From Candidatus Nanopelagicaceae bacterium (GTDB lineage: Bacteria; Actinomycetota; Actinomycetes; Nanopelagicales; Nanopelagicaceae): DNA of 33,821 bases. Under the pieces are notes generated by a model. That model was given only the letters and a program-made list of their open reading frames with translations, ran no database searches and was not told where the DNA came from. Made by a program: the position numbers and the translations under genes. The stretch covers positions 1-33,821 of the forward strand of contig VERH01000011.1 in the NCBI GenBank assembly GCA_018882735.1. Reading direction: 5' to 3'. Shown in pieces: positions 2,038 to 12,406 of the stretch; positions within the stretch are counted from its first letter, which is position 1; every line of letters begins with the position of its first letter.

Positions 2038-2591
2038 ATTCTCTAGTTATCGATACCTCAACAACGCGCACTAGTTGTGCTTTATTTAATGTGTCGGAAT
2101 TACTCTTTGAGGGCCATCATGATGGCGCAATCGAGCACGCTGAAGCGCTACCGAAGTTAGTAGCTGAAGCGTTGAAGATCGAGGAGAAGATTGATCAAGT
2201 TGTTATTGGTATGGGACCTGGTCCGTTCACTGGTCTGAGAGTTGGCATTGTCTTCGGCCAAACTTTTGCTACAGCACGAAACATTTCTTGGGTAGGAGTC
2301 TGTTCGCTAGATGGAATCGATATTGATTCACAAAGTTACATAGTTGCTACTGACGCGCGGCGGAAAGAGATTTACTGGGCTCATTATCAAGATGGCGAGA
2401 GAGTAGAAGGGCCCTTTGTTGGAAAGTCGGAAGAGCTAGCGACAAAACTAGAGAAGAAGTTTGGTTTTGGATTTACTGAGCCGCTCTATCCCTCACCACA
2501 TTTACTTCTAGCAAAATCAATTTCTATGAATTTCCGTGAGCCCTTCTATTTACGTAGGCCAGATGCAGTTCCAACAAGTGAGCGCTCATGA
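2034..2591 (+). CDS. tsaB: tRNA t6A biosynthesis scaffold protein TsaB
   Basis: Inactive paralogue of TsaD that scaffolds the TsaB-TsaD-TsaE complex. The N-terminal VIDTSTTRTSCALF and central GMGPGPFTGLRVG match the family. I start it at TTG 2034, which overlaps the tsaE stop as TTGA and has a purine-rich GGGAAGGG 8 nt upstream; the upstream ATG at 2016 would add six residues not expected before the ASKHA beta-strand. The resulting 185 residues are shorter than many TsaB proteins, with a brief C-terminal part ending in the expected FYLRRPDAVP. The stop overlaps the rimI ATG (ATGA), so translation is probably coupled. Confidence 0.93.
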   Translation: MNSLVIDTSTTRTSCALFNVSELLFEGHHDGAIEHAEALPKLVAEALKIEEKIDQVVIGMGPGPFTGLRVGIVFGQTFATARNISWVGVCSLDGIDIDSQSYIVATDARRKEIYWAHYQDGERVEGPFVGKSEELATKLEKKFGFGFTEPLYPSPHLLLAKSISMNFREPFYLRRPDAVPTSERS

Positions 2592-3040
2592 TCGAATATC
2601 GCGAGATGTCTACCTTCGATGTTCCAGCTCTTGTTGGAATTGAAAAGGAAGTCTTTCCTGAATCTCCCTGGAGCGCTGCTCAATTCCGGGAAGAGCTCTC
2701 CGGAGTACCAAAGACTCGTCGCTACTTAGTCGCTCATGAACAAGGAGTAATCGTTGGGTATGCGGGGATTGCTCTGGCCGGCGATGTTGCCGATATCCAT
2801 AATGTCGCTGTTATCCCAAGTTATCGAAAGCGTGGAATAGCAAGCCATCTTCTAGATGAATTGGAGCGCTGGGCTGCTTCCAAGAAGGTAAGCGCATTAA
2901 TGCTTGAAATCCGCGAGGGAAATGGTGAGGCCTTTCCGCTCTATGAAAAGCGTGGCTACGTAGTGATTGCGCGGCGGGATAACTATTACGCCACCGGTGT
3001 TCATGCCTTGATTATGCGTAAGGAGCTTGCCGATGAGTGA
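2588..3040 (+). CDS. rimI: GNAT N-acetyltransferase RimI (ribosomal protein S18-alanine type)
   Basis: GCN5-related acetyltransferase of 150 residues. The acetyl-CoA pyrophosphate-binding motif is R-K-R-G-I-A within [15 protein letters not shown] (about residues 78-92), preceded by the beta-strand ADIHNVAV. The C-terminal LYEKRGYV and RDNYY stretches are typical of RimI. RimI acetylates the N-terminal Ala of S18 in enterobacteria; actinobacterial homologues may have broader N-terminal substrates, so the substrate is family-level inference. Placement between tsaB and tsaD is the standard actinobacterial arrangement. ATGA overlap with tsaB; the 3' end overlaps the tsaD start by 8 nt. Confidence 0.93.
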
Positions 3041-4067
3041 GCCATTAGTACTTGGAATCGAGACTTCTTGCGATGAGACTGCTGTGGGAATTGTAAAAGG
3101 GCGAAAACTTCTTGCCAATGTAATCGCTTCTAGCGTGGATGAACACGCTCGCTTTGGTGGCGTTGTTCCGGAAGTCGCATCACGTGCACATTTAGAGGCG
3201 ATGCAACCAAGTATTGAGCGAGCCCTGAAGGATAGTGGTGTAAAGCTAAAGGACCTCGATGGGATTGCTGTTACGGCTGGCCCTGGCTTAGTTGGTGCGC
3301 TATTGGTCGGCGTATCTGCGGCAAATGCGCTAGCGCTAGCTCTTGATAAACCACTTTATGGAGTAAATCATCTTGCTTCGCATGTTGCTGTTGATTTACT
3401 CACTCATGAAAAGGAATTTCGTCCGAGCATCGCGTTATTGGTTAGTGGGGGACATTCCTCAATCTTAAAAGTCAAAGAATTAACAAGTGAAATCGAAAGT
3501 CTTGGCCAGACCGTTGATGATGCGGCTGGTGAGGCATTCGACAAGATCGCTCGGTTGATGAACCTTGGTTTTCCGGGCGGTCCAATAATTGATCGTGAGG
3601 CAAAAGAAGGTAATCGAGAAGCGATTAAATTTCCCCGAGGTTTATCCCAACCAAAAGATATGCAAGCCCAACCTTTTGACTTCTCATTCTCAGGTTTAAA
3701 AACTGCGGTATCTCGATACTTAGTCGCTACACCTGAATACAAACGTGCCGATGTCGCAGCTTCATTTCAAGAAGCAGTCGTCGATGTATTACTTATGAAA
3801 GCAATCAAAGCTTGTGTTGATACCGGAATGGATTCACTCGTGATCGCCGGTGGAGTAGCTGCTAACTCTCGCCTTCGAGAGCTCGCTGTAGAGCGTTCTG
3901 CTTCTGCTGGCATTGAAGTACGCACCCCACCACCGGCGTTATGTACCGATAACGGCGCCATGGTTGCTGCCTTGGGCTCCCTTGCAATCTCGGCCGGGCG
4001 GGCCCCATCCAACCTCGGCATTGCTGCCGCTTCGGATACCCCACCTACCCAGCCCCTCTGGCTCTAA
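3033..4067 (+). CDS. tsaD: tRNA N6-adenosine threonylcarbamoyltransferase TsaD
   Basis: Catalytic subunit that transfers the threonylcarbamoyl group from TC-AMP to A37 of tRNA. It begins [12 protein letters not shown], and carries the metal-binding H-x-x-x-H as HLASH (about residue 110), the family signature VSGGHSS, and FPGGPIID and SGLKTAV in the central region. C-terminal [13 protein letters not shown] and TDNGAM complete the ASKHA fold. Of two in-frame starts, ATG 3033 is preferred over TTG 3027, because AAGGAG at 3020-3025 is spaced 7 nt from 3033 but abuts 3027. Length of 344 residues is normal. Last gene of the t6A operon. Confidence 0.96.
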
Positions 4068-7619: not shown

Positions 7620-8574
7620 ATGTCTTCACAAGGGCCTTCTCAAGGGTCTTCTCAAAATAGGGCCCCAGCTGAGGCTGTAACTGAAGCTCTCACGGTCGCC
7701 GCAGTTGCGAGAAGGCTGGGAGTTGCCCCAGCAACGCTTCGAACTTGGGATCGCCGATATGGCCTAGGGCCAACCGATCACAGCTCCGGCGAACACCGTC
7801 GTTACACGGCTGGAGATATTGCCCGGTTAACTCTGATGCGAAAGCTCGTTATCTCAGGGGTCTCCCCAGCAGAAGCAGCGCAGCGCGCCTTGGCATTTGA
7901 TGGCGAGAGCTCGGCTGAAGTTATCTCTTCCACTCTTGCCAAAGAGGTAACGGTTAAAGAAGAGCTAGTTGAAACGGTCCTACGGGCTGCACGTGCATAT
8001 GATCGAAATTTCGTTGAGGAGTTACTCCGTTCTGAAATGCAGATGCGCGGTATCACTAATACCTGGAATGAAGTGATTGTCCCGCTACTTATTCTTCTAG
8101 GTGACGAATGGGCAGATGCTGGTACTGGGATCGAGACCGAACATCTTGTTAGTGAAATCATCAAGCGCTTACTTCAAGAGTGGAATACAACTGTTGTCGA
8201 TCCAATAAATCCTCGCCCGGTATTGCTCGCCTGCATTGGTGAAGAGATGCACTCACTTCCACTTTACGCTCTGGCCGCAGCGCTCTCTGAGCGAAAGATT
8301 CAAGCGCAATTTTTAGGAGCACGCACTCCAATAGAAGCAATTAGCGCAGTCGTAAAACGTTCTGCGCCACCTGCAATTTTCCTCTGGGCACAACTCAACA
8401 AGAATGGCGATCTCACTGCGCTCGAACAGATTCCAAGTATTAGACCAGCTCCTCGAGTTGTAATCGGCGGTCCGGGCTGGGGAGCCCAAACTGCTCTTAA
8501 TAAGGGCTCGTTTCAAAAGAGCGCCGTTCATGTCGATGATTTAGTTGAAGCCTGCGAGGAGATTTTCCGCGCTG

Positions 8575-8585
<11 letters not shown>
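7620..8585 (+). CDS. MerR-type regulator with cobalamin-binding domain (CarH-like)
   Basis: A 321-residue regulator: a polar Ser/Gln tail (1-20), a MerR helix-turn-helix (about 24-90, with RLGVAPATLRTWDRRYGL and GEHRRYTAGD), a helical cap domain (about 105-190), and a Rossmann-like B12-binding domain (about 198-320). The cap carries W164-x9-E174-H175, the adenosylcobalamin-shielding signature of CarH photoreceptors. The B12 site has E-M-H-S-L-P with His211 as probable lower ligand, a variant of E/D-x-H-x-x-G, and the later GG at 283-284. The residue after W164 is Ala, whereas the Thermus CarH post-light ligand His follows the Trp. It probably represses in a B12- or light-dependent way (inference). 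Target unknown; neighbours are whiB (divergent) and guaB. No clear Shine-Dalgarno before ATG 7620; an in-frame stop at 7557 limits upstream extension. Confidence 0.85.
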
Positions 8586-9738
<1,153 letters not shown>

Positions 9739-9740
9739 TC

Positions 9741-10853
9741 GTGGTCGATATTGAGATCTCCGAGGGCAAGCGGGCGCGTACTGCATATTCATTTGATGAT
9801 GTCTCGATAGTCCCTTCTCGGCGCACCCGTGAGCCGCAAGATGTATCGCTAACTTGGCAGATCGATGCCTATCGCTTTGATTTGCCGTTGATGGCCGCTC
9901 CGATGGACTCGGTTGTATCACCTGAAACAGCAATTGCTATCGGCAAATTGGGGGGACTTGGCGTACTAAATCTTGAGGGCTTATGGACTCGATACGAGAA
10001 TCCAAAGATCCAACTAGGTGAGATCTCATCGATTCCAGCCGAGCAGGCAACTGCACGTATGCAAGAACTATATAAAGCGCCGATTCGTCCCGAATTAATT
10101 AAGGAGCGATTGGCCGAGATTCGCGCAGCCGGGGTAACTGTTGCAGGCGCGCTCTCTCCCCAACGTACCGCTGATTTTCATAAAACAGTAGTTGATGCTG
10201 GAGTTGATCTCTTTGTAATCCGTGGGACGACGGTGAGCGCTGAACATGTCTCAACAAAGGTCGAACCGCTCAATCTAAAAAAGTTTATCTACGAATTGGA
10301 TGTTCCTGTTGTTGTTGGAGGGTGTGCTACAACTGCGAGCGCTCTTCACTTAATGCGCGCCGGTGCTGCTGGTGTTTTAGTTGGATTTGGTGGTGGCGCT
10401 GCACACACTACGCGTCAGGTACTTGGAATCTCAGTTCCGATGGCCACTGCAGTTGCCGATGTCGCAGCAGCCCGTCGTCAATACTTAGATGAATCCGGCG
10501 GAAGATATGTCCATGTGATCGCCGATGGCTCAGTAGGAAAGAGCGGAGATATTCCAAAGGCGATTGCTTGTGGAGCTGATGCTGTAATGCTTGGCTCGCC
10601 GCTCGCGCGCGCCGAAGAAGCGCCTGGTCGTGGTTGGCATTGGGGTAGCGAAGCTCACCACGCTGAGTTACCTCGCGGAACTCGAGTACATGCGGGAACA
10701 ACTGGATCTTTGGAAGAAATTCTCATCGGACCTTCGCATTCAGCTGATGGAAGTATGAACATATTTGGCGCGCTCCGCCGGGCAATGGCAACTTGCGGTT
10801 ACTCAGAACTTAAGGAATTCCAACGCGTTGAGATCGTTTTAAATAAAGGTTGA
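9741..10853 (+). CDS. guaB3: GuaB3 family IMP dehydrogenase-related protein
   Basis: A 370-residue barrel related to IMP dehydrogenase, of the GuaB3 type found beside guaB in actinobacteria. It begins with a [14 protein letters not shown] stretch and has [24 protein letters not shown] and [14 protein letters not shown]. Like other GuaB3 it has no CBS domains. The segment aligning with the catalytic Cys loop reads GGGAAHTTR, with His222 at the Cys position, so ordinary IMP dehydrogenase chemistry is unlikely. A cyanobacterial GuaB3 has been described with GMP reductase activity; whether that applies here is unknown. Start GTG 9741 has AAGGAG 6 nt upstream. It sits between guaB and guaA in one probable operon. 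Confidence 0.92.
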
Positions 10854-10855
10854 CC

Positions 10856-12406
10856 TTGCAGCGAAGTAATCACGTTTTAGTCATTGATTTTGGCGCCCAA
10901 TACGCCCAATTAATTGCGCGCCGAGTCCGCCAGGCAAATGTTTACAGCGAGATTGTTCCATCGACGCTAAGCGCCGAAGAGATCATGGCGCGTAATCCGC
11001 GCGCAATCATCTTGTCGGGTGGGCCTGCCTCGGTTTATGTCGAAGGAGCACCAAGTCTTGATCCAAAAGTTTTTGAACTAGATATCCCTATCTTTGGAAT
11101 CTGTTATGGCTTTCAAGCGATGGCCCAAGCGTTAGGTGGCCAAGTAGCGAAGAACGATGTATCTGCATACGGTCGCACCCATTTCAACGCCGATACCACC
11201 TCACATCTCTTTACAGGTTTGGATTCAAATTTTGATGTCTGGATGAGCCATGGCGATAGCGTTGTGGCGCCTCCTGCTGGATTTACAACTATCGGCCGGA
11301 CTGAAAATACTCCAGTTGCAGCTTTTGAGAATGAGAGCGGCCAATTTGCTGGAGTGCAATTTCATCCAGAAGTTTTGCATACAGATTTCGGCCAAGAAAT
11401 CCTTAAACGTTGGCTACTTGATGTCATAAAGTGCAAACCGACTTGGACTTCTGAGAACATCATTGAAAACGAAGTTATTAATATAAAGTCACAGGTCGGC
11501 TCGGATCGTGTCATTTGTGGGTTATCTGGTGGGGTTGATTCAGCTGTTGCCGCTGCGCTCGTACAACGCGCGATTGGCCCGCAACTGACTTGTGTATTCG
11601 TCGACCACGGGCTACTACGCCAAGGTGAAACCACCCAAGTCGAAGAGGATTTTGTTAAGGCAACTGGGGTAAAGCTAATTGTTGTTGATGCAAAGGAGCG
11701 ATTCTTAGCCGCGCTTCACGGAGTTGTTGATCCAGAAGCAAAACGGAAGATAATCGGACGAGAATTCATTAGAGTTTTTGAAGCGGCTGCTCGAGATCTA
11801 ACAAGCGGTGGCGAAGTAAAATTTCTAGTCCAGGGCACTCTCTATCCAGATGTAGTTGAGTCCGGCGGTGGAAGTGGTACTGCAAATATAAAGTCCCACC
11901 ACAATGTTGGCGGACTTCCTGATGATCTCGATTTTGAATTGATAGAACCGTTACGTTCGTTATTTAAGGATGAGGTTAGGGAAGTTGGAATACAACTAGG
12001 ACTCCCATCTGAGATTCTCTGGCGACAACCCTTTCCGGGACCTGGCCTTGCGATTCGAATAGTCGGAGAAGTTACTCAAGAAAGACTTAGAATCCTCCGC
12101 CAGGCCGACTTAATCGTCCGACAAGAATTACAATTTGCCGGACTTGATCGGAGTATTTGGCAATGCCCGGTCGTGCTACTCGCTGATGTTAGAAGCGTCG
12201 GAGTACAAGGAGATGGTCGAACTTACGGCCACCCAATCGTGCTTCGCCCGGTCACTAGCGAGGATGCAATGACTGCGGATTGGGCCAGAATTCCTGATGA
12301 GGTACTCGCTCGAATATCTAATCGGATTACGAACGAAGTTAAAGAAGTAAATCGCGTGGTACTTGATGTCACATCAAAACCACCCGGCACAATCGAATGG
12401 GAGTGA
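10856..12406 (+). CDS. guaA: GMP synthase (glutamine-hydrolysing) GuaA
   Basis: Aminates XMP to GMP using glutamine and ATP. An N-terminal class-I glutaminase domain (about 1-190) has nucleophile Cys in [10 protein letters not shown] and the His/Glu pair in GVQFHPEV. The ATP-pyrophosphatase domain carries the P-loop [12 protein letters not shown], and the C-terminal dimerisation domain ends in the family's usual KPPGTIEWE. Start: TTG 10856 is preferred because AAAGG (10845-10849) is spaced 6 nt from it; TTG 10850 overlaps the guaB3 stop as TTGA but abuts the Shine-Dalgarno. Length of about 516 residues is normal. Confidence 0.96.

What the first reader, a model, noticed from the sequence alone, without database searches (positions are those of the whole stretch)
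9741..10853. GuaB3 has His at the catalytic Cys position
Aligning GPGSICTTR of GuaB with GGGAAHTTR of GuaB3 puts His222 where the covalent Cys should be. With cyanobacterial GuaB3 described as a GMP reductase, an enzyme without the usual Cys raises the question of whether it is catalytic or a regulator of its CBS-less neighbour GuaB.
Basis: partly seen in the sequence, partly recalled or inferred. Interest (0 to 1): 0.5.

Follow-up and report, generated by a model that had tools for sequence, protein, structure and literature searches.

The report
Retired IMP dehydrogenase with rebuilt site
This bacterial gene looks like an enzyme of GMP synthesis, but it lost the cysteine that enzyme needs after another enzyme took over the step, and it is still strictly preserved even where the whole pathway is gone, so it probably has a different job that nobody knows.

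Summary
Observation confirmed: GuaB3 residue 222 is His where the covalent Cys of IMP dehydrogenase/GMP reductase sits. Cys loss is known for M. tuberculosis GuaB3 (2015), so the bare fact is not new. His is not subfamily-wide: in 251 aligned rows position 222 is Cys in 126, His in 83, other in the rest. The split tracks another gene. Of 59 genomes with Cys-GuaB3, 54 lack canonical GuaB, so GuaB3 is their only plausible IMP dehydrogenase; of 38 with Cys-less GuaB3, 38 have canonical GuaB, often directly upstream. A tree needs at least five Cys/non-Cys changes; a tree-aware pair test was too small for significance. His-type GuaB3 also lost a C-terminal tail and carries a fixed new pocket (Arg161, Gly218, His222, Glu304). 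Three near-complete genomes of a sister genus lost guaB and guaA yet keep His-type GuaB3 under strong purifying selection (dN/dS 0.03-0.05). So it is very unlikely to be IMP dehydrogenase or GMP reductase, and its upkeep does not depend on GuaB. Most likely it is a retired IMP dehydrogenase reused as a nucleotide-binding protein or new enzyme.

The parts
9741..10853 (+). guaB3, 370 aa, GTG start; GuaB3 family (TIGR01304)
   Evidence: 594.4 bits vs cut-off 342.1; AlphaFold2 model mean pLDDT 83.8, best structural matches 8p37/8p4q Z 49.2 and 2qr6 Z 47.2
10386..10415 (+). former catalytic loop, residues 216-225 [10 protein letters not shown]; His222 codon 10404-10406 where Cys-type GuaB3 and GuaB have Cys
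   Evidence: coordinates by arithmetic from the start codon; model confidence is low here (pLDDT < 50 at 218-221 and 226-230)
10221..10223 (+). Arg161; Gln in 125 of 125 Cys-type rows, Arg in 83 of 83 His-type rows; aligns with an Asp of GuaB that in canonical IMPDH binds the NAD ribose (function of that Asp recalled)
10650..10652 (+). Glu304; Ala in 124 of 125 Cys-type rows (the other has a gap), Glu in 83 of 83 His-type rows; aligns with the GMGS purine-contact segment of GuaB (role recalled)
8611..9738 (+). guaB, 375 aa, canonical IMP dehydrogenase catalytic domain with Cys (GPGSICTTR, residue 183) and no CBS domains; 2 bases from guaB3
10850..12406 (+). guaA, GMP synthetase, overlaps the guaB3 stop codon
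7620..8585 (+). MerR-type regulator with a B12-binding domain, upstream of guaB; not found, like guaB and guaA, in the g240 stretches searched

Best explanation
GuaB3 was the IMP dehydrogenase of the ancestors of this lineage [inferred from distribution]. Its Cys-type form is still the only IMPDH-family protein in most sampled genomes of other classes of the phylum, as in cyanobacteria. In the ancestor of most of the window's class a canonical guaB settled directly upstream of guaB3 and took over IMP -> XMP [inferred]. GuaB3, released from that task, lost the nucleophilic Cys and its C-terminal tail [shown by sequence]. In the main branch of the class it then fixed a new pocket (Pro54, Arg161, Thr164, Phe216, Gly218, His222, Met234, Glu304), while keeping residues aligned with the IMP phosphate/ribose site (Asp262-Gly263, Gly285) and Arg312 [shown by sequence; the ligand role is inferred from IMPDH]. 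The present protein therefore most likely makes neither XMP nor IMP. It most likely binds a purine nucleotide in the kept half of the site and acts through binding (sensor or regulatory subunit), or runs another reaction with the new polar residues [inferred]. Its function does not require GuaB or GMP synthetase, because it is kept under strong purifying selection where both are gone [shown].
For: Cys -> His at 222. PDB 8p37, Ser in place of this Cys in Synechocystis GuaB3, is titled catalytically inactive. Co-occurrence: Cys-GuaB3 genomes without canonical GuaB 54 of 59 (residues); Cys-less genomes with canonical GuaB 38 of 38 where the residue was read. Graded series inside the class: G459 Cys and no GuaB; G463 Cys with GuaB directly upstream; Frankiales/Frankiaceae MAGs with GuaB upstream and Cys -> Asn/Gly, C-terminal tail kept in L155 and L157, lost in L160; then His/Ser/Thr/Asp/Arg without tail. 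A second series in f32: G039, G162, G258, G247. Tail of 15 aa or more: 119 of 119 Cys-type, 0 of 58 His-type, 3 of 32 other. New fixed pocket. At least five Cys/non-Cys changes on starred branches, tree built without the active-site columns. Retention in 137 of 148 class genomes, 124 of 127 good ones. g240 retention without guaB/guaA, dN/dS 0.033-0.050.
Against: No ligand, assay or genetics was available for any His-type GuaB3; binding of a nucleotide is inferred from aligned residues only. Independent-pairs test on the tree: 3 pairs on starred branches; GuaB presence went the same way in 1.7 on average, never the other way, median p 0.5, so the association rests on few independent events. Five Cys-type genomes do have a canonical-like GuaB, so gain of GuaB is not at once followed by Cys loss. 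His itself is replaced by Ser or Thr within the same pocket in a few rows (f9, f2), so His is not indispensable. The f4 side, near C. glutamicum, has a different pocket (mostly Gln161, Thr222, Ala304) and may have another fate. Many genomes are MAGs, so absences can be assembly gaps.
Confidence: 0.68

Rival explanations
1. GuaB3 is a non-catalytic regulatory subunit of the neighbouring GuaB, for example a mixed oligomer that replaces CBS control.
For: guaB lies on the same strand in 77 of 82 His-type loci; the barrel fold is shared; near-universal retention beside GuaB in the class.
Against: In g240 (3 near-complete single-contig genomes) guaB and guaA are gone and His-type GuaB3 stays under strong purifying selection. 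CBS loss is limited, in what I sampled, to the window's family (56 of 58 guaB-bearing genomes of the order sample; G430 and G455 keep CBS length), whereas His-type GuaB3 is wider and sits beside CBS-length GuaB elsewhere. In f1 genomes without GuaB1 it also stays, so neither paralogue is an obligate partner.
Confidence: 0.17
2. GuaB3 is still an IMP dehydrogenase that uses His222 or another residue without the usual covalent intermediate.
For: Substrate-site residues Asp262, Gly263, Gly285 and Arg312 are kept; purifying selection.
Against: The Cys -> Ser form of Synechocystis GuaB3 is titled inactive; the NAD-side residue and the purine-contact segment are also changed; the C-terminal tail is lost; canonical GuaB is present in 38 of 38 such genomes; in g240 XMP would have no GMP synthetase to use it. 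M. tuberculosis GuaB2 was reported as the only functional IMPDH orthologue there (PMC3315515, abstract).
Confidence: 0.04
3. GuaB3 is a GMP reductase.
For: Member of the IMPDH/GMPR superfamily.
Against: Scores far below every GMP reductase cut-off (53.2 bits vs 397, 42.7 vs 492, 78.1 vs 675); GMP reductase needs the same Cys (recalled); the genome has a separate GuaB1 that passes the GMP reductase model (829 bits vs 675).
Confidence: 0.03
4. GuaB3 is decaying after replacement by GuaB, without function.
For: GuaB3 is lost altogether in some lineages: G247, f78; its catalytic loop is deleted or scrambled in f32 G258, f17, f70, f71, f75.
Against: In the window's family dN/dS is 0.01-0.05 where it could be computed, 92 sites are 99% or more conserved among His-type rows, and 124 of 127 good class genomes keep it.
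Confidence: 0.04

Closest known systems
Synechocystis GuaB3 (PDB 8p4q; inactive mutant 8p37)
   Same: Same family and fold (Z 49.2, 49% identity), canonical flap absent, PRGTR segment with Arg312, no CBS domains
   Different: Has the Cys (GPGAACTSR), Gln161, Met303-Ala304; cyanobacterial GuaB3 is described as an IMP dehydrogenase (PMC13273366 passages; Hernandez-Gomez 2023 known only from its reference entry and from recall)
Cys-type GuaB3 of Acidimicrobiia, Thermoleophilia/Solirubrobacterales, Rubrobacteraceae and others
   Same: about 54-65% identical to the window protein, usually next to guaA (109 of 125 loci)
   Different: Keeps Cys222 and the C-terminal tail; the only IMPDH-family protein in 51 of 56 genomes searched
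Corynebacterium glutamicum GuaB3 (PDB 2qr6)
   Same: Cys-less GuaB3, fold match Z 47.2
   Different: Loop three residues shorter (VG---GGENTNS), pocket differs from His-type
M. tuberculosis GuaB3 (Rv3410c)
   Same: Reported to lack the catalytic Cys (PMC4594927, S1 Fig legend)
   Different: Its pocket was not read here; if it belongs to the f4 side, as I suspect from recalled taxonomy, it has Thr at 222 and Gln161 rather than His/Arg
Canonical GuaB (window 8611-9738) and GuaB1 (GMP reductase model, L002)
   Same: IMPDH/GMPR superfamily barrel
   Different: Both keep Cys ([18 protein letters not shown]); GuaB also has the flap segment that GuaB3 lacks; GuaB3 aligns with GuaB at about 30% identity

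Membership tests
GuaB3 family (TIGR01304) | score above curated cut-off 342.1 bits | tested here: met
   594.4 bits over residues 4-366
GuaB3 family (TIGR01304) | no CBS domains, no canonical flap, PRG segment | tested here: met
   370 aa, alignment with GuaB and 8p4q
catalytic (Synechocystis-like) GuaB3 | Cys in GPGxxCT/SxR loop | tested here: not met
   GGGAAHTTR; His222
catalytic (Synechocystis-like) GuaB3 | C-terminal tail after residue 367 seen in all full-length Cys-type rows | tested here: not met
   119 of 119 Cys-type, 0 of 58 His-type; the window protein ends three residues after 367
IMP dehydrogenase (TIGR01302) | score above cut-off 481.5 bits | tested here: not met
   142.2 bits; the true CBS-less GuaB next door also misses it (439.9), so this cut-off is not diagnostic here
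IMP dehydrogenase | covalent Cys and mobile flap with Arg-Tyr (recalled) | tested here: not met
   His222; the flap segment that holds DRY in GuaB is not matched in GuaB3
IMP dehydrogenase | NAD-dependent oxidation of IMP | not testable with these tools
   no assay
GMP reductase (NF052358, NF003470, TIGR01305) | score above curated cut-off | tested here: not met
   78.1 vs 675, 53.2 vs 397, 42.7 vs 492.15 bits
GMP reductase | covalent Cys (recalled) | tested here: not met
   His222
regulatory subunit of GuaB | always found with GuaB | tested here: not met
   g240: no GuaB in 3 of 3 genomes with His-type GuaB3
regulatory subunit of GuaB | physical contact with GuaB | not testable with these tools
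   no interaction data

The most novel reading that the evidence does not exclude
His-type GuaB3 is a new enzyme or nucleotide sensor: after canonical GuaB took over, its pocket was rebuilt around Arg161, His222 and Glu304 (each in 83 of 83 His-type rows, in none of 125 Cys-type rows), and it now performs a widely conserved actinobacterial task outside the XMP/GMP pathway, which is why streamlined genomes without guaB and guaA still keep it.
Probability: 0.35. Interest if true: 0.75.

Novelty: new variant of a known kind. Interest (0 to 1): 0.55.

Why it matters
GuaB3 is kept in nearly all sampled genomes of the window's class and its function there is unknown. As recalled, that class includes Streptomyces, mycobacteria and very abundant freshwater bacteria. 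The data turn 'GuaB3 lacks a Cys, function unknown' into an ordered hand-over: which genomes still use GuaB3 as their only IMP dehydrogenase, where canonical GuaB arrived, and what changed afterwards. They make two things directly testable: Cys-type GuaB3 of Acidimicrobiia should complement a guaB mutant, and His-type GuaB3 should not but should bind a ligand through Arg161/His222/Glu304. They also name natural knockouts (g240) that rule out a purely GuaB-dependent role.

Tried and rejected
Rejected: another Cys in the catalytic role (Cys195/277/352 also occur beside Cys222 in Cys-type rows); GMP reductase and IMP dehydrogenase readings (see rivals); a sequencing error (37 of 37 loci in the order); His as a subfamily-wide trait.

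Inconclusive: the phylogenetic independent-pairs test. The AlphaFold2 model is poor exactly in the catalytic loop and gives no coordinates, so distances between Arg161, His222 and Glu304 were not measured. A search for guaB3 locus tags gave mostly chance hits (one S. coelicolor paper that holds SCO4771 was listed and not read). Searches for 'IMP dehydrogenase' + 'pseudoenzyme' + 'GuaB', 'IMP dehydrogenase' + 'Acidimicrobiia' and Nanopelagicus + purine + auxotroph, and a find in PMC7527133, gave nothing. The key paper (Hernandez-Gomez 2023, Structure) and the GuaB1 paper are not held, so whether the His-type pocket or the Cys/non-Cys split is already in print could not be checked beyond the searches. 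PMC6299477 lists guaB3 in a table of its section on knockdowns and knockouts; which was made of it I could not tell.

Rows and limits: the pairwise alignment put Val at 222 in eight f4 loci where the multiple alignment puts Thr; both are non-Cys. Identical and contained proteins were dropped before counts (231 to 214; likewise, where the number dropped was not printed). The window's own protein is in the 251-row set twice (WIN and L001). Only 55 of 70 tree rows bore both traits. GuaB3 residues of G482, G496, G415 and G434 were not read and these genomes are not in the 59 and 38; nor are those other than G162 and G039 (G039 is among the 56).

Full report
Observation. The ORF at 9741-10853 is GuaB3 (TIGR01304, 594 bits, cut-off 342). 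Its loop [11 protein letters not shown] aligns without gaps with [11 protein letters not shown] of the GuaB encoded just upstream and with GPGAACTSR of Synechocystis GuaB3. His222 stands at the Cys. A 2015 paper already says that M. tuberculosis GuaB3 lacks the catalytic Cys and may not be an IMPDH (PMC4594927, figure legend passage). The printed sequences of these two differ, as far as I see, only at this Cys, which is Ser in the mutant.

Breadth. TIGR01304 passes its cut-off in 309 of 396 genomes of the phylum sample. I read the residue in 102 loci first, then in 251 aligned rows: Cys 126, His 83, Ser 17, Thr 14, Asp 4, Asn 3, and one each of Ala, Gly, Arg and gap. The sampling is mine (about one per family, plus 80 named loci and the window's order) and is not random; 37 His loci come from the window's order. 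Named Cys-type carriers are Acidimicrobiia, Solirubrobacterales/Thermoleophilaceae, Rubrobacteraceae and some MAGs with odd labels; named His carriers are Streptosporangiaceae genera, Streptomyces and Yinghuangia. In the window's class GuaB3 is kept in 137 of 148 genomes, 124 of 127 good ones.

Who else makes XMP. In 56 genomes with Cys-GuaB3, a PF00478 search finds no further IMPDH-family protein above 50 bits in 51, a GuaB1-like one in two (G140, G086, about 320 bits) and a canonical-like one in three (G199, G028, G208; 435-505 bits). Adding G162 (has GuaB), G459 (none) and G463 (has GuaB) gives 54 of 59 without canonical GuaB. The 25 genomes with Cys-less GuaB3 all have canonical GuaB (in G382 split over one 883-aa frame), and so do 13 more for which I had read the residue (G470, G540, G474, G466, G464, G493, G507, G556, G562, G479, G402, G418, G441; in G466 split over one 889-aa frame): 38 of 38. 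The three g240 genomes below are the exceptions. Neighbours agree: guaA lies on the same strand in 109 of 125 Cys-type loci and guaB in one, while guaB lies on the same strand in 77 of 82 His-type loci (flanks are short, so absences mean little).

Order of events. A tree built without the active-site columns and tail needs at least five changes between Cys and non-Cys on starred branches (with all columns one search gives five, four of them forced). Two graded series show how it may go. In the window's class: G459 has Cys-GuaB3 and no GuaB; G463 has Cys-GuaB3 with GuaB directly upstream; Frankiales/Frankiaceae MAGs L155, L157 and L160 have GuaB upstream and Gly or Asn at 222, with the C-terminal tail still there in L155 and L157 and lost in L160; the rest have lost Cys and tail. 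In family f32: G039 Cys alone, G162 Cys plus GuaB, G258 loop deleted plus GuaB, G247 GuaB only. The association is striking but the number of independent events is small: the independent-pairs test had 3 usable pairs and cannot reach significance.

What changed. Besides Cys222, the tail after residue 367 is present in 119 of 119 full-length Cys-type rows, 0 of 58 His-type and 3 of 32 other. Cys-type rows share Ala54, Gln161, Val164, Val216, Pro218, Cys222, Gln234 and Met-Ala-Thr 303-305 (115 of 125 identical at the twelve positions compared), while His-type rows share Pro54 (82 of 83), Arg161 (83), Thr164 (82), Phe216 (81), Gly218 (83), His222, Met234 (83), Glu304 (83) and Ala305 (82). Arg312 is kept in both. 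Asp262, Gly263 and Gly285 are kept too. In canonical IMPDH the aligned positions serve the NAD ribose, the Cys loop, the purine contact and the phosphate/ribose of IMP (roles recalled; alignment). So the base/cofactor side was rebuilt and the phosphate/ribose side kept. Some rows with this pocket have Ser or Thr at 222 (f9, f2), so His is not indispensable; the f4 side (C. glutamicum nearby in the tree) and f91 have other pockets.

A natural knockout. In genus g240 of the window's family (G403, G406, G414; one contig each, 99-100% complete) there is no canonical GuaB and no GuaA beyond weak hits of about 1e-11, yet His-type GuaB3 lies between groEL and the peptidyl-prolyl isomerase gene as in the window, 75-76% identical to the window's. 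dN/dS among the three is 0.033-0.050; neighbouring genes give 0.02-0.11. These genomes keep GuaB1 (the one of G403 passes the GMP reductase model) and HGPRTase. Conversely 15 of 61 genomes of the order sample lack GuaB1 but keep GuaB and GuaB3; by match counts GuaB3 is in 61 of 61 (G434, G415, G418, G402 and G441 rechecked). GuaB3 is thus the paralogue never lost there, and it needs neither GuaB nor GuaB1.

CBS-less GuaB. 56 of 58 guaB-bearing genomes of the order sample have the short form; G430 and G455 have frames of 505-521 aa. His-type GuaB3 is found well beyond this family, beside GuaB of CBS length, so CBS loss and His are not cause and effect.

Structure. The model (pLDDT 83.8, pTM 0.86, 21 sequences) is a barrel whose best matches are 8p37 and 8p4q (Z 49.2), 2qr6 (47.2), then IMPDHs (about 34). 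Residues 163-171, 218-221 and 226-230 have pLDDT under 50, so no claim on side-chain geometry is made.

Judgement. Loss of IMPDH/GMPR chemistry in this protein: about 0.93. Descent from a once sole IMPDH after take-over by GuaB: about 0.75. Present role by ligand binding or new chemistry, independent of GuaB: about 0.7; which of the two is open.

Noticed in passing
window 7620-8585: The gene upstream of guaB is a MerR-type regulator with a B12-binding domain, an odd partner for a purine operon; it was not found, like guaB and guaA, in the g240 stretches read.
   Followed up: no
window 8611-9738; order sample: GuaB has lost its CBS (Bateman) domains in 56 of 58 guaB-bearing genomes of the window's order sample; G430 and G455 keep them.
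   Followed up: partly
L234, L235, L236 (G403, G406, G414): A genus of streamlined relatives lost guaB and guaA, which predicts a guanine requirement; HGPRTase and GuaB1 are kept. In L276 a transporter-like membrane ORF (2559-3980) lies convergent next to guaB1.
   Followed up: partly
G199, G028, G208, G162, G463: Genomes with both a Cys-type GuaB3 and a canonical-like GuaB: possible snapshots before the hand-over.
   Followed up: partly
G247, f78 (G457, G480, G494), f79 (G458): Genomes that have canonical GuaB but no GuaB3 match.
   Followed up: partly
L161, L164, L152, L173: Cys-type GuaB3 on records titled Armatimonadetes, Acidobacteria and Bifidobacterium breve MAGs; possibly mislabelled bins.
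   Followed up: no
PMC5504048 Table 1: The paper lists Rv3410c (GuaB3) as orthologue of C. diphtheriae GuaB with active-site peptide [12 protein letters not shown]; by sequence that is the canonical GuaB type, not GuaB3.
   Followed up: no
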